Virus record (IMG/VR): IMGVR_UViG_3300005338_000016
Location: 1-47,292 of that record
DNA from: a virus
Length of the DNA: 47,292 bases
Reading direction: 5' to 3' (one strand)
Notes under the pieces: model-generated
The model's input: the letters and a program-made list of their open reading frames with translations, nothing else
Databases searched by the model: none
What the model was told of the DNA's origin: nothing
Part shown: piece after piece, positions 11,971 through 33,800 of the stretch
Numbering within the stretch: position 1 is the stretch's first letter
Layout: each line of letters starts with the position of its first letter
Position numbers and translations under genes: made by a program

Positions 11971-13206
11971 TTAAACCATCTTACTTTTCGGCACATACCC
12001 AATCCCACCTTCTGCAAATTTCTTTTCAATGAGTTTCGCCCGTTCCATAACGTCGATAATTCTCGCGACGTTGTGGGCGGGCGTTCTTTCCTGGAGGAAG
12101 TGGAAGAGACGGTGCTCGAGGACCGGGTTTTTATTCTTGTCCTTGATGAAGATTTCATAGATGAAGTGATAGGCCTCCTCGATAACTTTACCGTCGCCAC
12201 CTGTTTTCATAGCTTTGAAGATATCTGGGATCGCGTGTTCCATTTCAGCGAGCCAATCGAGGGCTTCGGCGAAGTGGTCCAAGGTTATTTCGTAACCGGA
12301 ACCCGAGGCCACGCAGGCGATCTGACAAAGTTTTAAAAGATGTGCTGGGCGGCGGGTAAGGTAGTCCGCAAGCTTTGGATGCGATGGCTGGGGGGCGCCG
12401 CCACTTCGTGCCCAGGCGTTAATCGCTTCTTTTACTTCATCAGTTGGAATGAGTTCCCCTACCATCTGATTCACCGACTTCAAATCATCGACAAGGTTAT
12501 TCCATAACTTACTGTCGAACTCAAACTCTGCAAACATATCTGTAAAGTCAGCGGCCCCGGAGTACACCATAAGGACTCGAGCCATGAAGCCATGTTCCCA
12601 GGCACCTTCGGGGAGGAAGCCATTTAGGTAAGTCGGGGTTGTGGCCGAGAACATATTCAGCTGCGCCGACGGAATATTAATGTTGATTTTGTTCGTTCGC
12701 CGAGTCTCGGAGTAGTTCTTACAATCCCAAAGATCCGTCAGGGTGTTCATAAACTCCCCGTCGTAAGCTGGGAGAAATACGCCAAGCTCATTGACTACGA
12801 TGGATAAGGAGTTGAATGAAAAGATCGGAGGTGTCGCCATTGGCCGAATGATCTTTCGCTCGGCGCCGTCGAGTGCATCTATCAGCGAAGCCTTTGTAAC
12901 TGACGTAGGGGCAAGGTGAACGTTCGCGTTCTCCGCTAATTCTCGAAGTAACTCGTAAACCGTATTGGTCGCGAGAGACTTTCCGGTCCCGGCTTTACCC
13001 ACCAGTACTACGTACATGTTCGGGAAGAGCTTTCCCTTCGCAGTTCGCAGCCAAACCTTGCGCTCGACTGCAGCAGCCAGCGTATATATCGCGGCCCACT
13101 TGCGCCAAAGCACTGGCGATCCTTTACCCTCGGTATAGCTAATAAAGCCGTCCACCCAGTTAGCTAGGTGGCGGCCCTTTGCCTCTGCGAGTTTAACGAC
13201 GGTCAT
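11971..13206 (-). CDS. DUF3987-like P-loop ATPase (helicase/primase-associated)
   Basis: 411 residues with Walker A GKAGTGKS at 70-77 and a Walker B-like strand ending in Asn139-Glu140 (LSIVVNE). The layout (N-terminal helical lead-in, P-loop, a NELGVF-type segment, a SATTPTYL-type segment near residue 185, helical C-terminus) matches the DUF3987/YfjI-type family found in phage replication modules. It overlaps the polymerase gene start (ATGA), so the two are translationally coupled, and it probably acts as replicative helicase or loader. No zinc-binding primase domain is visible. Confidence 0.75.
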   Translation of the reverse strand: MTVVKLAEAKGRHLANWVDGFISYTEGKGSPVLWRKWAAIYTLAAAVERKVWLRTAKGKLFPNMYVVLVGKAGTGKSLATNTVYELLRELAENANVHLAPTSVTKASLIDALDGAERKIIRPMATPPIFSFNSLSIVVNELGVFLPAYDGEFMNTLTDLWDCKNYSETRRTNKININIPSAQLNMFSATTPTYLNGFLPEGAWEHGFMARVLMVYSGAADFTDMFAEFEFDSKLWNNLVDDLKSVNQMVGELIPTDEVKEAINAWARSGGAPQPSHPKLADYLTRRPAHLLKLCQIACVASGSGYEITLDHFAEALDWLAEMEHAIPDIFKAMKTGGDGKVIEEAYHFIYEIFIKDKNKNPVLEHRLFHFLQERTPAHNVARIIDVMERAKLIEKKFAEGGIGYVPKSKMV

Positions 13207-14741
13207 AAGAGAACTTGAAGGGAGAGTTTCCTTTGTGGTTTGCGAGACCGCTGGTCTCCGCCTTTATATTTCTTGAGGCCTTCGGGATTTCCATCACTAT
13301 AATTTCCCCAGTTCCAGCCAGTCTTGGCCTCGGTTGGGACGGAAAACTCACGTCCCTTTTTAAGTATGATAGTGGAGCGGAGAGTCTCCAGCGCCCACGG
13401 TACGATTTCATCTTCGAGTTCTTCGGGGTATTGGAATAGAATGGAGTCGTGGACTTGGATTAAAAGTTGTACGCGGTTCGCGCGCCAAAGGGCTAGGATG
13501 CCTGTGTTGATTTCATCGCCGGTCATGGACTGGGGGGAATATGCGATTGCTTTTCTGTGAGTGGCTGCGTCGGTGGGGCGGCCGAAGAAGAAGCGACGGC
13601 GGCCGTAGAGGGTGGTTAGGGGTTGGAAGTTTTTTATCTGAGAAATGGTTGCGGTGTGCCAGGCGGGAATGCAGGGGAAGGCGGAGAAATAATTTTCGTG
13701 AAAGGTTTTTACAGTTGAGATAGGAAGCTTAGCGTGCTTTGCCATCGTCGGGGGAGTGCCAAGGTAGTTCGATCCATGCCCGAGTTTTTTAGTAAGGTCT
13801 CTGTAAGTGAGATGTCTGTAAGCAAGTTGATCAGCAATTTCTCGATCTGATCTTCCGGTATCCCAAGGAAGTATTGGATTAGACATTTTGCAGACTGTAG
13901 TGTGAAGATCGCCTCCCTCACAGACATCGAGATATTTTCCTGCATCTTTCTCACTCCAATCAGGGTTGTCGATAAATAAGTCCCAGCAAAGCGCCCCGAC
14001 ATTACGGGCATCAGCCTGCTCGAGATCGAGGTTGGCGAATTTCATTCCGGGGTCGGCGACGAAGACGCTCCGTAAACTCTCGGTTACGTTTTGGAGGTTA
14101 GTTCCTGTTCCGAAATCAGATACACTTGAAGACCACCGTCCGGTGTCAGTTCCTGCAATTGAAAAGTTACTCCGCATGCGGCCATCCGTATCGATTCCTG
14201 TTTCAAGAAATCCGATCGACTTACCGAGATCCCGGAGACATAGAAGGTGGTTGATAATGGGTTCAGCAATGAAGTTAACGGATAGTTTTTCAAGAGCCTC
14301 CCGGTCTGTAGTTGGGGCATACACTCCATTTGCATTCCTTTTCTTCTGAACTGGAAGTCCCATGACTCCATACAGTAATCTTCCAAGCTGCGCCGGCGAT
14401 CGCCAGTTAACGCTCACGCCCACGCCTTCAAGAATGATCTGGTCAAGTTGACTTTCAAGCCGGGTAAGTTTCGCCCGCATTTCTTTCAGCGTCTTTGCCC
14501 GCGCTCGCTGATCAACCTTCACGCCGCGAAGCATCATTTCGAGGACTGGGGCCTGGAGGGCTTTGGAGAATTCGTAGGTTCGGCGAGCGTGGGTGCGGTT
14601 CTCGGGGCCGGCATCTAGATGGGGGAGCATATTTTCGTAGCAGTCAAGAGTGACTGCGGCGTCCAGCCCGTTGTAAACTAGATGCGCAATGTCTGGCGTC
14701 AACGACACAGGATCAAGGGTCTCGGTATGGATTACCTGCAC
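13203..14741 (-). CDS. family A DNA polymerase, C-terminal (polymerase) subunit
   Basis: The polymerase core is complete: motif 1 AGTDTGRWSS (197-206), motif A Asp239-Leu-Glu-Gln-Ala-Asp-Ala-Arg246, motif B Arg314-Asp-Leu-Thr-Lys-Lys followed by Tyr326, and motif C His431-Asp432. Residues 23-27 (Tyr-Asn-Gly-Leu-Asp) are the ExoIII motif of the 3'-5' exonuclease, whose ExoI and ExoII motifs lie in a separate gene at 15407-16405. Start is GTG at 14741 with AGGA about 9 bases upstream, overlapping the DUF1937 gene. So this is the second half of a split polymerase; both halves seem complete and should assemble to give proofreading. Confidence 0.92.
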   Translation of the reverse strand: MQVIHTETLDPVSLTPDIAHLVYNGLDAAVTLDCYENMLPHLDAGPENRTHARRTYEFSKALQAPVLEMMLRGVKVDQRARAKTLKEMRAKLTRLESQLDQIILEGVGVSVNWRSPAQLGRLLYGVMGLPVQKKRNANGVYAPTTDREALEKLSVNFIAEPIINHLLCLRDLGKSIGFLETGIDTDGRMRSNFSIAGTDTGRWSSSVSDFGTGTNLQNVTESLRSVFVADPGMKFANLDLEQADARNVGALCWDLFIDNPDWSEKDAGKYLDVCEGGDLHTTVCKMSNPILPWDTGRSDREIADQLAYRHLTYRDLTKKLGHGSNYLGTPPTMAKHAKLPISTVKTFHENYFSAFPCIPAWHTATISQIKNFQPLTTLYGRRRFFFGRPTDAATHRKAIAYSPQSMTGDEINTGILALWRANRVQLLIQVHDSILFQYPEELEDEIVPWALETLRSTIILKKGREFSVPTEAKTGWNWGNYSDGNPEGLKKYKGGDQRSRKPQRKLSLQVLL

Positions 14742-15073
14742 GGAAAGTAATCCTCCCCTACGAAGGTGATGAATTTATTTGTAATCTCTGCTGCGTCGAT
14801 CTCGGCCATGACTCCTTTGGAGTCCTGCCATCCATCTAACTTCAAAACCCAAAGTTCTTTGGCCGCGCTGAGCATCGCGAGATTATAAGTTTCCCAGAAT
14901 TTAAATTCAGGTGGCATGGAATATTTTATGGCGAGCGCATGGCAATGAACGATGGGGGAGAAGATGGGGCGTTCGCGGGCGATGGCGCGGGCCACGAAAC
15001 GCTCGGCGGCCTCGAAGCGGGCGGTCATGGTAGTGGGGTCTGAGTGGGTGTAGGGGGATGCGAGGTAGATCAT
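14732..15073 (-). CDS. DUF1937-like protein (nucleoside deoxyribosyltransferase fold)
   Basis: 113 residues starting MIYLASPYTH, with SPIVHCHALA, the FWETYNLAML helix, LDGWQDSKGVMAEI and a terminal strand. These are hallmarks of DUF1937, a Rossmann-like family related to nucleoside 2-deoxyribosyltransferases. It would act on nucleotides or nucleosides, though the reaction is unproven. It sits between the two polymerase halves, overlapping neighbours on both sides. Confidence 0.8.
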   Translation of the reverse strand: MIYLASPYTHSDPTTMTARFEAAERFVARAIARERPIFSPIVHCHALAIKYSMPPEFKFWETYNLAMLSAAKELWVLKLDGWQDSKGVMAEIDAAEITNKFITFVGEDYFPCR

Positions 15074-15414
15074 TATTGATTTCCTAGAAATTGAATATGA
15101 CCATCAGAACCCACTGGTAAAATTTCAATAGCTAGACCTTTCTCAACTTTAATCTGAAGGGCACGCATTTCAAAAAGTGCTAGCATCTCACGGGCTTTTT
15201 GAATAATTGATTCATTACCTGACCAAGGCTTTTCATTATCTAAAGTTAGAACACGATCAATTAAAGCCCGGATAACTTCTTGGCATGAAGTTCCTGGATA
15301 TCCAGTACTATGAATAGCCGGGTCTTTGTAAAAAGTTAGTTCAGTCACACCTTCATTTTTAAGATTTGCGAGATGATATTTGTGACCTGATTCGATAACA
15401 TGCATCTCATTCAT
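15073..15414 (-). CDS. hypothetical protein with helical-hairpin motif (possible Acb2-like)
   Basis: 113 residues, A+T-rich compared with the polymerase halves. The segment from about residue 43 (QEVIRALIDRV) through Pro62 and Asn66-Glu67 to LALFEMRAL resembles a common small phage protein pattern (EEVL..LIDR..L....P..EN...I.K..EAL..L..R). From memory, similar hairpins occur in Acb2/Tad1-type cyclic-nucleotide sponges. This is a resemblance only; the protein is longer at both ends. It overlaps the stop of the UDG-exonuclease gene by 8 bases. Confidence 0.6.
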   Translation of the reverse strand: MNEMHVIESGHKYHLANLKNEGVTELTFYKDPAIHSTGYPGTSCQEVIRALIDRVLTLDNEKPWSGNESIIQKAREMLALFEMRALQIKVEKGLAIEILPVGSDGHIQFLGNQ

Positions 15415-16405
15415 CCTTCTTTAAAGTAGTAATCTTCCGCATGTGTTTCCAACTAGCCTCATCCGTGTAAATTGAAGCAAGAAAACCTAATCCTTTTTGC
15501 ATTTCGGGTTGCATAGCGTGGTGCATGAGCATAGTATCTTCGATGGCGTTAGGGCAAATAATGCCGTATCTCCGCCAGAGATATTGGATATCATAGAGAC
15601 CATTCTGAAAAAGGGATGGAAATTTACACCAGTCGGAAATATACTTCCATACGATTTTCTCATCGGCCGCACTCCAAAATGATCTGCCTTCTGCCGACAC
15701 AATCGGCACCACGATAGCTACATCAGGCCTCGGCGAAAAACCAATACAAGTAATCTGCTCCAGCTTCGTCTCAATATCAATTGAAACCAGCTTTGGTTTA
15801 TAAAGGTACCGGGTCTCCGCCCATGATAAATCCGCGAGCGTCTCGACAATATGGATCTCCCGTTTCGGCCGGCGAAATTCCTTATATACACTTTCGCGCT
15901 TGGCTTTGTCAAGGTCGGCGATGACTACTGGACGGAGTTCCCACTGGCGACTTATAGCTGAAGGTGAATATGTAGGAAGAAGTTTAATCCCAGGAGTAAG
16001 ACGAGAAGCAACGCAAATAGCGCCGCGAGAATTGCGAATGCCGGATGACCCCGTGAAGGCCCACGCGGCCGCCGCTCCAAGGGCGACGATGACATTGGGA
16101 GAAGCGGCGATGATTTCTTGGGTGAGTCTTTCCAGTTCACTTGCGTACTCCTTTAGTACGTATTTGCCTTTGAGAAGTTCGGGGGCGCCGGGGATGCCTA
16201 GGGTACGGGGGCCGCAAAGGTTCTTGATATCTGTAGATGGCTTTGGCCGGATATTGAAAACTGAAGTGACGAAACAATCACGACGGGATATACCTACCTG
16301 CGCAAGCATCCCATCGAGAACGTAGCCGGCAGAGCCAGAAAAAGGCCGGCCGGTTTCCTCATCTTCGACAGTCCAGGCCTCGCCGACGAGGGCGATGTCA
16401 GGCAT
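15407..16405 (-). CDS. DNA polymerase N-terminal subunit: UDG-like domain plus 3'-5' exonuclease motifs I and II
   Basis: Residues 1-170 form a uracil-DNA glycosylase superfamily (family 4-like) domain: GEAWTVEDEETGRPFSGSAG at 8-27, and TYSPSAI near 145-151, where active family members usually have a His (HP); here it is Ser, so glycosylase activity is doubtful. From residue 205 a DnaQ-like exonuclease starts: ExoI Asp210-Ile-Glu212, ExoII Asn268-Gly-Leu-Tyr-Asp272, then EDTMLMHH (289-296). The chain ends at 332, before ExoIII, which lies in the polymerase gene. Fusion of UDG-like, exonuclease and polymerase domains is known in phages such as SPO1. Here the chain is broken by two intervening genes. 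Confidence 0.9.
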   Translation of the reverse strand: MPDIALVGEAWTVEDEETGRPFSGSAGYVLDGMLAQVGISRRDCFVTSVFNIRPKPSTDIKNLCGPRTLGIPGAPELLKGKYVLKEYASELERLTQEIIAASPNVIVALGAAAAWAFTGSSGIRNSRGAICVASRLTPGIKLLPTYSPSAISRQWELRPVVIADLDKAKRESVYKEFRRPKREIHIVETLADLSWAETRYLYKPKLVSIDIETKLEQITCIGFSPRPDVAIVVPIVSAEGRSFWSAADEKIVWKYISDWCKFPSLFQNGLYDIQYLWRRYGIICPNAIEDTMLMHHAMQPEMQKGLGFLASIYTDEASWKHMRKITTLKKDE

Positions 16406-23522: not shown

Positions 23523-23735
23523 TTACGCTCGTCTCATTGCTTGTCGATGTCGTGCCATAGATCTGTAATGATCGCTATAGTTATCTTCATCCTCGTCTTC
23601 TCCGTATTGGTGTGAATGGGGATAGATCGGTTTTTTACAAACAGGACAACAGCGCTGATAATCACAAATAGCAACTTCACAGCATCTTGTGAAATGTGTA
23701 CTATTGGTAGATGAGCAATAAAATACACCCGGCAT
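23523..23735 (-). CDS. small Cys-rich (zinc-binding) protein, 70 aa
   Basis: The ATG overlaps the helicase stop (TAATG). Cysteines at positions 7, 18, 19, 24, 29, 30 and 33, including CCPVCKKPIYPHSHQYG, suggest a zinc ribbon, followed by a His/Asp/Glu-rich region and an Arg-rich tail. Likely nucleic-acid or protein binding; function unknown. Confidence 0.65.
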   Translation of the reverse strand: MPGVFYCSSTNSTHFTRCCEVAICDYQRCCPVCKKPIYPHSHQYGEDEDEDNYSDHYRSMARHRQAMRRA

Positions 23736-26032
23736 TAATTTACCTTTCCATAATCTTCAGTTCGAATAAACCCAAGAAACTTCTTAGCCCTAGTAATGAT
23801 GACGTAGCGAAGATTTCTATCTTGGCCCTCGATATCCAACAGATGCTGATCAAGGAAGAATACGTAATCGTACTCCAAACCCTTCGACTTATGCCCAGTC
23901 ATGCACTTTACTGGTCCCGAAGACGAGAACAGGTGTTCTGCATACGCAATGCTTTCGCCGAGCGTGGCGCCTACCTCCGCGAAGATAGTCATACATTCAG
24001 CTTTGTCCTCGACGGCGCGGATCCCGGACTTTCGGGCCTTTTTGAGTTGCGCCTCTTTCCAGTCCGAGATGTTTTGGAAAACTTCGTTTCGAGACATAGA
24101 AGAGTTGCCGAACTTCTTCATTACTTTCAGTAAGGCTTTGCCAATATCATTACCAGATAGCTCGGGATAGCGTCCGGCTTTCAGCAAAGTGATTGCCATT
24201 CGGAATAGTGGCGCGTTATTTCGGCAGATGATCGCGCTGCCATCGGGGATATCCTCGGTGGTCCAACCGGAGTACCGACGAACTTCGCCCTGGATCGCCC
24301 ATTCAGGATACTGCATCGTGGGCGCCCGCCATCGTGCGGCCTCGACTACGGAGATGGGGCAGCGGAAAGAGATCGAAAGGGGAAGTTCTACCATGGAAAA
24401 GGTAGATTTAAGGAGGTCCATGGATTCTTCGTGCGCGCCCCGAAAACCATAGATGGCTTGGCAATTGTGCGTTACAATATTATCTGCAACGTATAAATGA
24501 TTATCTGAAACTGTTAATGAATACACTTCCAAATCTTCTACCCATTCGTGTAATACTTCCACAGGTTCCCAGGCGGCTTTAGCGCTTTTTGAATCCCCAT
24601 TATAAGGAAGCATGAGACAACCTGAAATTAGGTTGCAAGCCTGCATAATAGATGGTCTAAGGAGACTAAATTTAGCTGGAAATCCTTTTTGCCAAATGGG
24701 GTATTCCATCATACGATTATAATAGTCAAAACATTGTTCAGCCCGTTCGGTTAAATTAACTGAAGCTAGAATATAACTCCAAGCCTCATCAAGATAATCC
24801 TGATTAGCAAACCCAATGTTTTGATTAGGGCAAATAAAAGTTATATCTGGAATACCAAAATGCGCTTGGGCAACCGCCTCCTCTAGAGCTGCTTCTCGCT
24901 CTGTTTTATAAACACCTAATATCCAATAAGCATCTGCTCCTTCCGCGTGTGCTCGTCGTGTAGGTCCACTCCCACATTCATAATCCATTTTACAGCGGCC
25001 AAGTCTAAATTTATCTCCTTTACGCATCACGTAAAGAGCGTAATATTTTCTAAAAGGCTCGAACGAAGCATAACAATGATGGTTTTCTGTATATTTAGAC
25101 GACTCACCTGCAGCCATTTTAACGGTTGTAAGATTACCTTCAAAAAGATTTGAACTAATACCTTCGACAGTTCTATTGAAAATGAAAGCTCCTTCGCCAT
25201 TATATCCAAGTAATTTGTCACCTACTGATAGCTGTTCAATAGGTACTTTACGTAATTTAGGAGGATTCCAACGATCACCCAATTTATCTACTACAGTTAC
25301 TAATGTTCCAGCAGGTTGACAAGCGTCGCCAACAGCTATGATGCGTTTTGTCACTAGTTTTTTTAGCATGGCATGGTTTAGCGCGGAAAGGTCCTGGGCT
25401 TCGTCGATCAAGATGAGAGGGTATCGCGGGAAGGCCCCGATGCCTAGGGTTGGCATGAGGATTTGGTCGTCGTAGTCGCAGATTCCCTGCCACGCCTGCT
25501 TTATGCTTTCAGAGGTTACGTGGACTACTAGTAGTTCTTCTTCCTCGGTTAGCTTTTCATCAAGGTGGGCGAAAAACTCCTGCTCACGCATAAGCGCCTT
25601 CATCCTGGGGGTGCCTTCGGGGATGAAACCGCAGGCTTTACCGAAGCGAACTGTATTCATGAGGTCGGCCATACGGGGGTAAAGGATTTTCTTCTCCTCG
25701 GGAGAAAGGGTTTCCATGTAAGCTGATGTGATGTCGTAGACTTTAGATGATTCGATCCGGAGTCGGCGGCCGATGGCGTCTTGCCAAATGCGGTGGCCAA
25801 GGCTATTTAATGTCTGACAAGTGCAGTTTCGAGGCATTCTTTCCTGCATTTCAACTGCTATCTTTTTATTAAAGCAGAGGGCTAAAATTTTAAGATCGGG
25901 AAGGGCCTCGGCGAGGAGGACAAGGGTGGAAGTTTTGGCCGCACCGGCAAGGGCGGAGACTAGAAGATTGTCAGTTGTGATTGTAGCTGCGTGGATGATG
26001 GCGGATTGCTCTTCAGTGGGCTTGAAGGTCAT
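23735..26032 (-). CDS. UvrD/Rep-family DNA helicase precursor with intein, 765 aa
   Basis: Superfamily 1 helicase. Start at 26032 is preferred (AAGGA 7 bases upstream; a longer frame would overlap the gene at 26043). Motifs: Q-like TEEQSAIIHA; motif I LAGAAKTST, where the usual GxGKT is GAAKT; motif II LIDEAQD; motif III IAVGDA then CQAIYGFRGA once the intein is removed; motif V TGHKSKGLEYDYVFF; motif VI YVIITRAKK. The intein sits at Cys238-Asn523, inside motif III between GDA and CQAIY, so the helicase is inactive until splicing. It unwinds DNA in replication or recombination. The spliced host protein would be about 479 aa. Confidence 0.93.
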   Translation of the reverse strand: MTFKPTEEQSAIIHAATITTDNLLVSALAGAAKTSTLVLLAEALPDLKILALCFNKKIAVEMQERMPRNCTCQTLNSLGHRIWQDAIGRRLRIESSKVYDITSAYMETLSPEEKKILYPRMADLMNTVRFGKACGFIPEGTPRMKALMREQEFFAHLDEKLTEEEELLVVHVTSESIKQAWQGICDYDDQILMPTLGIGAFPRYPLILIDEAQDLSALNHAMLKKLVTKRIIAVGDACQPAGTLVTVVDKLGDRWNPPKLRKVPIEQLSVGDKLLGYNGEGAFIFNRTVEGISSNLFEGNLTTVKMAAGESSKYTENHHCYASFEPFRKYYALYVMRKGDKFRLGRCKMDYECGSGPTRRAHAEGADAYWILGVYKTEREAALEEAVAQAHFGIPDITFICPNQNIGFANQDYLDEAWSYILASVNLTERAEQCFDYYNRMMEYPIWQKGFPAKFSLLRPSIMQACNLISGCLMLPYNGDSKSAKAAWEPVEVLHEWVEDLEVYSLTVSDNHLYVADNIVTHNCQAIYGFRGAHEESMDLLKSTFSMVELPLSISFRCPISVVEAARWRAPTMQYPEWAIQGEVRRYSGWTTEDIPDGSAIICRNNAPLFRMAITLLKAGRYPELSGNDIGKALLKVMKKFGNSSMSRNEVFQNISDWKEAQLKKARKSGIRAVEDKAECMTIFAEVGATLGESIAYAEHLFSSSGPVKCMTGHKSKGLEYDYVFFLDQHLLDIEGQDRNLRYVIITRAKKFLGFIRTEDYGKVN
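24464..25321 (-). mobile_element. intein in helicase motif III, 286 aa
   Basis: Starts at Cys (CQPAGTLVTV, block A) and ends VADNIVTHN (blocks F and G: His-Asn) followed by the +1 Cys of the extein. Block B is GESSKYTENHHCYASF, with the T-x-x-H motif. Between B and F, about 150 residues include YYALYVMRKGDKFRLGRCKM and a later EREAALEEAVAQAHFGIP, which resemble the GIY-YIG strands and metal-binding Glu helix; no LAGLIDADG motif is present. The region is richer in A+T than the flanking helicase. A self-splicing, possibly homing-competent, protein element. Confidence 0.92.
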
Positions 26033-26042
26033 GGGAGGTTCC

Positions 26043-26222
26043 TTATTGTGCTCGGTGTGCAGTAGGAATATCAAGGAGAGTTAAAAGGAGTCGTTCTTTT
26101 AAAACTAGATAACGTTGATGAATACTTTCACGATCATCCAGGCGCATACTGCCCCGCATTTCATCGTCGCGAACTGCATTTTCAAATTCACGAATTATTC
26201 GTAAGGCTTTATCTCGTTTCAT
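26043..26222 (-). CDS. small charged helical protein, 59 aa
   Basis: MKRDKALRIIREFENAVRDD begins a basic-acidic amphipathic protein. Its stop is 10 bases ahead of the helicase start, which helps fix that start. No domain recognised. Confidence 0.65.
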   Translation of the reverse strand: MKRDKALRIIREFENAVRDDEMRGSMRLDDRESIHQRYLVLKERLLLTLLDIPTAHRAQ

Positions 26223-32233: not shown

Positions 32234-32395
32234 TTATACCAGCGCCATCCAAGCGGCTACCGCCGCCCTTCGCTTATAAAATTCCTCCCTTGCGATATCG
32301 CGGAGGGCGAAAGCGCGGGAACGCGCGTGGGTGTGGATGGCGTGTTGGTCGCGAATGCGAGTAGCGTGAACGTCAACGCCTTTGGGACTATTCAC
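32234..32395 (-). CDS. small basic protein, 53 aa (GTG start)
   Basis: GTG at 32395 lies 7 bases after GGAG and overlaps the stop of the upstream gene by 8. VNSPKGVDVHATRIRDQHAI then an Arg/Ala-rich helix. Strongly basic, could bind nucleic acid. Short and without homologue recognised, so moderate confidence. Confidence 0.5.
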   Translation of the reverse strand: MNSPKGVDVHATRIRDQHAIHTHARSRAFALRDIAREEFYKRRAAVAAWMALV

Positions 32396-32732
32396 CTTTC
32401 ATCTCCTTACAGTGTGCGTTCCATCGATCAGCGGCGCGGGCCATGCGGAGTAATTCTTCTTCCGCATTCCACCTAGAATCCTCGTTTCCATCACGTAGAA
32501 CTGCAAGCCAAGTGAGAAGTATCTCCTCCCAGGTTGGCGTGTAATCGATATACTCCACGATGTGGATATCCTTCGCGATGGGTCTCGGTCTCGCCTTCTC
32601 AGTAATCACCTTACCGATAAACTCCTTGCCTACGATTTTCTCTAATCCATTTTTGAAAATTTCAGGTGGGATGATAGTTCTCGAAGCTGACCCCTTAAAC
32701 GCTTGACCCTCTACGCCTTTGGGCGCCTTCAC
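32388..32732 (-). CDS. hypothetical protein, 114 aa
   Basis: GTG start overlapping the previous stop (GTGA). Lys-rich, with IHIVEYIDYTPTWEEILLTW and a helical C-terminus with NAEEELLRMARAADRWNAHC. No known domain. Contains the 17-bp sequence also present ahead of the gene at 30764-30982. Confidence 0.7.
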   Translation of the reverse strand: MKAPKGVEGQAFKGSASRTIIPPEIFKNGLEKIVGKEFIGKVITEKARPRPIAKDIHIVEYIDYTPTWEEILLTWLAVLRDGNEDSRWNAEEELLRMARAADRWNAHCKEMKGE

Positions 32733-32833
32733 AGCAACCCCCGCAACCGATGGATTTCGAGGGAGAGCGAGAGGCTTGGGCGTTCCGCGAATGCTTGCAA
32801 GGCGGCGGCTAGGAGGATTTGAATTTTATACAT
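32729..32833 (-). CDS. very small protein, 34 aa
   Basis: MYKIQILLAAALQAFAERPS, a hydrophobic N-terminal helix then a Leu/Ser/Arg tail. AAGGA 8 bases upstream of ATG; GTGA overlap with the next gene. It is the first reading frame after the hammerhead ribozyme, with a short leader. Confidence 0.5.
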   Translation of the reverse strand: MYKIQILLAAALQAFAERPSLSLSLEIHRLRGLL

Positions 32834-32855
32834 CGCTTCAGTCCTTATGACGTGG

Positions 32856-32907
32856 AAGACTCATCAGGCCGGGTTTCACCCGACGACCGCCGAGGCGGTT
32901 TCGTCTT
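32856..32907 (-). ncRNA. hammerhead ribozyme, type II
   Basis: Read leftward, the 52 nt parse fully as a hammerhead: stem II 3' strand AAGAC; G12-A13-A14 (GAA); stem III ACCGC-CTCG-GCGGT with A15.1-U16.1; C17; stem I GTCGGG-TGAAA-CCCGGC; core CTGATGA (C3-A9); stem II 5' strand GTCTT, pairing perfectly with AAGAC and giving the G10.1-C11.1 closing pair. Open stem is II, hence type II. Predicted cleavage is between 32885 and 32884 (after C17). It overlaps the TAA of the gene at 32906-33073 by two bases and ends 23 bp before the next start, so it should cut the polycistronic early mRNA between these genes. Confidence 0.93.
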
Positions 32908-33073
32908 AGCTTTTAAAATTTCCTCCTTTGTGGATAATTCGTTTTGCGGCTTCCCACGAAAATTCCACATCACCGCCTATACCATCCGAACGATAGATAA
33001 TCGCGGTTGGATTTTTATCACTACGCATCTTGGCCGAATGTCCATCCAGTGTAATTTTTTGATTGCCTAACAT
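32906..33073 (-). CDS. small protein, 55 aa, first gene of the leftward early operon
   Basis: ATG at 33073 has an ideal GGAGG site 5 bases upstream; the longer upstream frame runs through the promoter and is unlikely. MLGNQKITLDGHSAKMRSDK, then beta-like IIYRSDGIGGDVEFSWEAAK. Basic ends. It lies 23 bp from a good sigma70-like promoter, so should be expressed first. Its stop touches the hammerhead ribozyme. Function unknown; an early host-takeover protein is plausible. Confidence 0.7.
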   Translation of the reverse strand: MLGNQKITLDGHSAKMRSDKNPTAIIYRSDGIGGDVEFSWEAAKRIIHKGGNFKS

Positions 33074-33095: not shown

Positions 33096-33124
33096 TTTAT
33101 ACCACAAACCGGGGTCCAATGCAA
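33096..33124 (-). promoter_or_regulatory. sigma70-like promoter driving the leftward early operon
   Basis: Read leftward: -35 TTGCAT (33124-33119), 17-base spacer, -10 TATAAA (33101-33096). Start expected near 33089, about 16 bp before the ATG at 33073. Close to the bacterial consensus, so host RNA polymerase should use it immediately after infection. Confidence 0.8.
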
Positions 33125-33247: not shown

Positions 33248-33448
33248 CTAGGGGGTACCCCCGTGCCCGACCCCCCACGTACCCATGATTTCCGGAATGA
33301 TATGGTCCCCAACTCCCCCACTTGTGGGCTTGCCCACCTGGGATATGGCTCTGAGGGGGGTTCTAGTCAAAAAAAAAAATTGGACCATATGAACCTCACC
33401 ATAAAGAAAACGGCGCATACCTCGAGTTTTGGGGGACGAGGAGGTGGA

Positions 33449-33480
33449 TATGGTTGTGGGAAGTAGTTCACAAAGCCATA
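33449..33480. repeat. 32-bp imperfect palindrome, copy C
   Basis: Starts TATGGTTGTGGGAAGT and ends CCATA, 32 bases long like copies A and B, in the centre of the control region between the two divergent promoters. Its first 16 bases equal those of copy B. Confidence 0.75.
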
Positions 33481-33800
33481 TCGACCTCGGGACCATATGT
33501 GTCCGGGATTTGCGTGTGAGACGGGGTGGCGCGAAATCGCGCCCCATAGGATACAGTAGCCATGCAGTACTGCAGCCATGCGTCATGCTAGGTAGGGATG
33601 ACGTGAGTGATGGTGTCGCCGTGGCGTATGCCAACGCGTCGGCGGGTACCGCGTTCGGGGTATTATGTACCGATCGTTCACGGGCCGTTTCCGGGTAAAA
33701 TTCGGGGCATTGGACCGCCCACCCGATCCCATCGGATGCGTGCCATGGAGGTGGTGGCAGAACCATATGGGGCTGGGCGAAAAATATTTACGGAAGGGGG

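What the first reader, a model, noticed from the sequence alone, without database searches (positions are those of the whole stretch)
32856..32907. Complete type II hammerhead ribozyme between two early genes
Every core nucleotide of the hammerhead motif is present on the minus strand: CTGATGA, GAA, A15.1-U16.1, C17, and perfect stems I (6 bp, GTCGGG/CCCGGC), II (5 bp, AAGAC/GTCTT) and III (5-6 bp). The open stem is II. The element touches the TAA of one gene and lies 23 bp before the next start, so it would cut the early polycistronic mRNA between genes. Hammerheads in phages are known, but most genomes lack them and their role in mRNA processing or timing is little studied.
Basis: partly seen in the sequence, partly recalled or inferred. 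Interest (0 to 1): 0.92.

Follow-up and report, generated by a model that had tools for sequence, protein, structure and literature searches.

The report
Compact self-cutting RNA between phage genes
Between two small genes of an uncultured tailed phage lies a complete hammerhead ribozyme, a short RNA predicted to cut itself and so split the shared messenger RNA; it belongs to a compact form that is common in viral DNA at exactly this kind of gene junction and that the standard RNA library mostly misses.

Summary
On the minus strand, 32907-32856 carries every core nucleotide and all three helices of a type II (stem II open) hammerhead ribozyme, with the cut expected between 32885 and 32884. Rfam's type II model scores it 26.9 bits, below its cut-off of 37. 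A covariance model built from 28 viral hammerheads without the window scores it 60.6 bits (E 4e-14). It is the only such element in the window, and 37 records with a related terminase lack one, though many are fragments.

It belongs to a compact subclass: a 17-nt stem I hairpin (6 bp, 5-nt loop starting with U) and a stem II of 4-5 bp. Only 2 of 40 viral records carrying this form pass Rfam's cut-off, whereas the new model finds it in all 40. In two pattern-collected sets, 129/135 and 125/136 elements directly follow a stop codon and 130/135 and 124/136 directly precede a start codon (random positions 22% and 52%). The window's element has the commonest spacing.

Best reading: self-cleavage punctuates an operon mRNA, leaving each product a hairpin end. 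Perreault et al. 2011 proposed mRNA processing for phage hammerheads. Cleavage and any effect on expression are untested here. Verdict: real; a new member of a known kind.

The parts
32856..32907 (-). type II hammerhead ribozyme, whole element
32903..32907 (-). stem II 5' strand AAGAC; A 32907 is the near-invariant A (11.5)
   Evidence: sequence; A in 130 of 136 compact elements
32899..32902 (-). core G12 A13 A14 and A15.1 (GAAA)
   Evidence: invariant in alignment A1
32886..32899 (-). stem III hairpin ACCGC CUCG GCGGU (includes A15.1-U16.1)
32884..32885 (-). predicted cleavage site between C17 (32885) and G1.1 (32884)
   Evidence: hammerhead rule (cut 3' of H17); not tested by experiment
32868..32884 (-). 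stem I hairpin, 17 nt: GUCGGG UGAAA CCCGGC
   Evidence: covarying stem in relatives
32861..32867 (-). core CUGAUGA (C3-A9)
32856..32860 (-). stem II 3' strand GUCUU
32906..33073 (-). upstream gene, 55 aa from ATG 33073 with SD GGAGGTG (ORF open back to 33235); its TAA overlaps stem II
   Evidence: no PHROG, Pfam or viral relative
32842..32846 (-). Shine-Dalgarno-like AAGGA, 8 nt before ATG
   Evidence: sequence
32729..32833 (-). downstream small ORF, 34 aa, putative
   Evidence: sequence; no homology evidence
32388..32732 (-). next gene, 114 aa, start overlaps previous stop (GTGA); phrog_22670, function unknown
33096..33104 (-). possible extended -10 promoter element (TGGTATAAA) before the 55-aa gene
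   Evidence: by eye; not found by the consensus scan, weak

Best explanation
A functional compact type II hammerhead ribozyme that cuts the minus-strand operon mRNA once, between the 55-aa gene and the downstream genes. The upstream mRNA would end in the stem III hairpin with a 2',3'-cyclic phosphate. The downstream mRNA would begin with the stem I hairpin and a 5'-OH, about 50 nt before its start codon. The likely effect is to separate the genes into independently decaying mRNAs with hairpin-protected ends. Shown here: sequence, core, stems, class membership and conserved gene-junction position. Inferred: cleavage, its speed, the state of the ends (from hammerhead chemistry) and the effect on mRNA stability and translation.
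For: Complete core and stems; chance excluded; independent covariance model E 4.4e-14. The class is under selection for structure: stem I pairs all show changes on both sides, covariation score 0.726 against 0.166 for shuffles and at most 0.104 for slid partners; 98.6% of pattern matches form stem I of 5 bp or more against 1.4% of shuffled 17-mers. Position: stop codon within -40..+15 in 129/135 and 125/136 elements, start codon within 90 nt in 130/135 and 124/136 (random positions 22% and 52%). Arrays: some viral genomes carry 4-9 hammerheads, most of them between successive genes. Literature: tandem prophage hammerheads cleave in vitro and, for A. tumefaciens, in E. coli, and the 5' end of an HF2 halovirus early transcript maps within 3 nt of a hammerhead cut site (PMC3088659).
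Against: No cleavage or RNA-end data for this sequence. The usual loop I-tail pseudoknot is at best 3 bp (GUG/CAC). Its stem II has 5 bp with U rather than the usual A opposite the conserved A 11.5. Secondary-structure prediction favours competing folds: stem I probability 0.33, among the two lowest of 30 compact elements, though the energy gap to native (4.4 kcal/mol) is below the class median of 6.4; these programs ignore the tertiary core. A short hairpin UGAUG/CGUCA just 3' could sequester the core. No other record with a related terminase carries the element, so its conservation within the lineage cannot be tested.
Confidence: 0.8

Rival explanations
1. The ribozyme cleaves, but its main role is regulatory: a ribosome ending at the overlapping TAA covers the GAAA core and stem III, so cleavage is blocked while the upstream gene is being translated and proceeds otherwise, coupling cleavage to translation.
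For: The stop codon overlaps or abuts stem II in the window and commonly in the class: offsets -1/-2 in 73 of 135, -2/-3 in 54 of 136. Ribosome footprint from general knowledge.
Against: Phage intergenic gaps are short, so any element placed there would abut the stop; no expression data.
Confidence: 0.12
2. An inactive or slow relic: core intact, but no working tertiary contact and misfolding, so no biological effect.
For: Weak pseudoknot, low predicted stem I probability, single copy and absent from records with a related terminase.
Against: All core positions and stems intact, which drift would not preserve; loop U, A 11.5 and modal spacing match the class.
Confidence: 0.06
3. A chance or misread hairpin pair (for example a bidirectional terminator) that only resembles a hammerhead.
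For: Two GC-rich hairpins; Rfam score below cut-off.
Against: E 4.4e-14 with an independent model; expected chance count far below 1; no T-run after either hairpin.
Confidence: 0.01
4. Part of a pair of ribozymes that excises or circularises an RNA segment.
For: Other viral genomes carry tandem copies.
Against: Only one element in this window; Perreault et al. did not detect spliced or circular products.
Confidence: 0.01

Closest known systems
Type II hammerhead ribozyme (Rfam RF02276; Perreault et al. 2011, PMC3088659)
   Same: Same core, same circular permutation (stem II open), same gene-junction setting in prophages and phages.
   Different: Compact stem I (17 nt instead of about 22-23), stem II 5 bp instead of about 2, little or no loop I-tail pseudoknot; scores below the Rfam cut-off (26.9 against 37).
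HHphage of haloviruses HF1/HF2 (PMC3088659)
   Same: Hammerhead shortly before the start codon of a viral gene (13 nt there, 22 nt here), in a polycistronic early region.
   Different: HHphage is a core variant from a high-salt virus, placed at the head of the transcript, with a mapped 5' end; here the core is canonical, there is an upstream gene, and no RNA ends are known.
Tandem hammerheads flanking genes in prophages (A. caulinodans, A. tumefaciens, C. scindens; PMC3088659)
   Same: Ribozymes between co-directional phage genes of mostly unknown function.
   Different: Several copies there, single copy here.
glmS ribozyme (general knowledge)
   Same: Self-cleaving RNA before a coding region.
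   Different: Different fold; cofactor-dependent; no ligand evidence here.

Membership tests
hammerhead ribozyme | Core nucleotides CUGANGA, GAAA and UH at the cleavage site | tested here: met
   CUGAUGA, GAAA, UC
hammerhead ribozyme | Three helices meeting at the core, with A15.1-U16.1 and G10.1-C11.1 | tested here: met
   stems 6-7, 5 and 5 bp
hammerhead ribozyme | Significant match to a covariance model of the class built without it | tested here: met
   60.6 bits, E 4.4e-14
hammerhead ribozyme | Stem I - stem II tertiary contact | tested here: inconclusive
   pseudoknot only 3 bp; class-typical loop U and A 11.5 present, but their contact is inferred
hammerhead ribozyme | Self-cleavage 3' of H17 giving a 2',3'-cyclic phosphate and 5'-OH | not testable with these tools
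   needs in vitro transcription
type II permutation | Stems I and III closed by loops, stem II open, order GAAA - cleavage site - CUGAUGA | tested here: met
Rfam RF02276 by curated threshold | Score at or above the gathering score of 37 bits | tested here: not met
   26.9 bits; only 2 of 40 viral records with the compact form pass, so this is a limit of the model, not of the ribozyme class
phage mRNA-processing hammerheads | Between co-directional genes, sense strand | tested here: met
phage mRNA-processing hammerheads | mRNA ends at the cut site in infected cells | not testable with these tools
   uncultured virus record, no transcriptome

The most novel reading that the evidence does not exclude
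Compact type II hammerheads form a large, mostly unannotated class in viruses of prokaryotes, used as standard stop-ribozyme-RBS-start junctions, and the overlap with the stop codon lets the terminating ribosome control whether the mRNA is cut.
Probability: 0.15. Interest if true: 0.75.

Novelty: new member of a known kind. Interest (0 to 1): 0.47.

Why it matters
What phage hammerheads do is called an open question in the literature (PMC6155905; PMC10085705). This element sits in a simple setting (one ribozyme, short leader gene, clear RBS), which suits a clean test. The compact form is largely invisible at Rfam's default threshold, so phage annotation probably undercounts self-cleaving RNAs; the stop/start positional regularity in more than 250 viral elements gives the mRNA-punctuation idea a quantitative basis.

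Tried and rejected
Closest relatives for direct conservation: DNA search of phages and protein-pattern searches with three neighbouring genes gave no relatives; terminase relatives lack the ribozyme, and the two weak hits in G008 (15.6 and 14.6 bits, different places) are near noise. BLAST of the 67-nt element against named phages gave only partial chance-level hits. SD accessibility before and after cleavage showed no consistent change, so an RBS-unmasking switch is not supported. Loop I-tail pseudoknot: real across the collected set (mean 3.75 bp against 2.91 shuffled) but only 3 bp in the window. Repeats CCATAT/ATATGG in 33.3-33.8 kb were considered as part of the system and set aside as unrelated. 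Terminator reading rejected: no T-run.

Full report
Observation. The minus strand of the window reads, from 32908: TAAGACGAAACCGCCTCGGCGGTCGTCGGGTGAAACCCGGCCTGATGAGTCTT, followed by CCACGTCATAAGGACTGAAGCGATG. This is GAAA - stem III - U16.1 C17 - stem I - CUGAUGA flanked by the two strands of stem II, i.e. a hammerhead with stem II open (type II). One pair in stem I is U.G, so 'perfect' is slightly too strong. The TAA of the upstream gene (32908-32906) shares two bases with stem II. The next ATG is 32833-32831, with AAGGA 8 nt before it.

Chance. A descriptor with canonical core and three helices found this site alone in the window; in 30 Mb of first-order random sequence with the window's composition it gave two loose type II hits and none with all stems at 5 bp or more. 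Rfam at gathering thresholds reports nothing in the window; with E-values, Hammerhead_II scores 26.9 bits, E 0.0019 in 401 nt. Folding energy is not remarkable and is not a useful test for this motif.

The virus. The window is a 47,292-base virus record with terminase, major head protein, a phrog_332 head-tail adaptor, split DNA polymerase, primase/helicase, and a UvrD-like helicase carrying an intein-like insert. Its terminase has 37 relatives in IMG/VR and matches of at most 47% identity in named phages. None of those 37 records has a convincing hammerhead, but many are fragments, and most of the window's minus-strand genes, including both neighbours of the ribozyme, have no or only weak matches in the terminase-centred stretches held. 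So the element's conservation cannot be tested in its own lineage.

Relatives of the element. In 138 elements the stem I insert has discrete lengths: 22 nt (72), 17 nt (31), 23 nt (21), few others. The window has the 17-nt form: 6 bp and a 5-nt loop that starts with U. A model (R1) from 28 elements with 17-18-nt inserts, without the window, scores the window 60.6 bits, E 4.4e-14, with no other hit. In these 28, every stem I pair shows changes on both sides; covariation 0.726 against 0.166 in shuffles and 0.04-0.10 with slid partners. Stem III and the first stem II pair are partly fixed by the search pattern and should not be counted.

136 of the 139 elements (window included) form stem I of 5 bp or more and a stem III; shuffled 17-mers reach that stem I in 1.4%. 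Loop I starts with U in 133 of 136, and the base at 11.5 is A in 130 of 136, regardless of where the stop codon falls. The window has both. Opposite A 11.5 most have A; the window has U, so its stem II is 5 bp, as in six other elements. A contact between loop-I U and the stem II A is my inference, by analogy with known hammerhead loop contacts.

Rfam blind spot. In 40 viral records with the compact form, RF02276 passes its cut-off in 2 and reaches E 0.01 in 26; R1 finds the element in 40 of 40. In the first set, records whose only elements are compact scored about 25-38 bits and those with 22-23-nt inserts mostly above 37. Caveat: these 40 records were chosen by a pattern close to R1's content, so 40 of 40 is not an unbiased sensitivity; the point is the low Rfam score of plainly canonical hammerheads.

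Position. In the first set (135 distinct, window included) an upstream same-strand ORF ends within -40..+15 of the core C in 129, against 22% for random positions; the commonest offsets are -2 (38) and -1 (35). An ATG ORF starts within 90 nt downstream in 130 (random 52%), mostly 14-40 nt away. In the second set the figures are 125 and 124 of 136, the commonest offset is -2 (33), and the start is a median 25 nt from the reference point. The window lies at offset -2. Some genomes carry 4-9 hammerheads, most of them between successive genes. The genes downstream are mostly of unknown function and diverse.

Mechanism. The most economical reading is mRNA punctuation: the nascent operon transcript folds the ribozyme as soon as stem II is complete and cuts once. 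The upstream RNA then ends in the stem III hairpin, and the downstream RNA starts with the stem I hairpin and a 5'-OH, ends that by general knowledge are poor substrates for 3' exonucleases and 5'-monophosphate-dependent decay. I found no support for an RBS-unmasking switch. Secondary-structure prediction gives competing folds for the window's element (stem I probability 0.33; among the two lowest of 30 compact elements), but its native-to-MFE gap is below the class median. So activity is likely but its speed is uncertain. A regulatory variant, with the ribosome at the overlapping stop codon blocking the fold, is possible; short phage gene gaps explain the overlap equally well.

Known background. 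Perreault et al. 2011 described the first natural type II hammerheads, tandem copies flanking prophage genes with the suggestion of mRNA processing, in vitro cleavage of tandem arrays, activity of the A. tumefaciens ones in E. coli, and a halovirus hammerhead 13 nt before an early gene whose 5' end maps within 3 nt of the cut site (PMC3088659). Later papers still call the function open (PMC6155905; PMC10085705). I did not find a description of the compact form as a separate class in the text I could read, but Perreault's supplementary alignments were not available and may contain it. Hence: new member of a known kind, with a useful side result on annotation and gene-junction position.

Noticed in passing
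window 23735-26074 (-): UvrD-like helicase appears to carry an intein-like insertion (about residues 277-537; Pfam Intein_splicing E 2e-4, below its cut-off; ends in ...VADNIVTHNC).
   Followed up: partly
window 13203-16405 (-): Family A-type DNA polymerase seems split over two ORFs (15407-16405 and 13203-14741, adjoining parts of phrog_17) with two small ORFs between them.
   Followed up: no
window 33299-33770: Several CCATAT/ATATGG motifs in an apparently non-coding stretch upstream of the minus-strand operon; possible regulator-binding sites.
   Followed up: partly
L162 (G076), L163 (G065), L164 (G066), L165 (G048): Viral genomes with arrays of 6-9 type II hammerheads, most of them lying between successive genes.
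   Followed up: partly
L066, 7793-7838 and 8327-8372 (-): Two hammerheads with identical core and tail, including the RBS region, before different genes in one genome, as if the whole junction cassette had been copied.
   Followed up: no
window 32866-32848 (-): Core strand UGAUG can pair with CGUCA just before the SD, a possible competing hairpin.
   Followed up: partly
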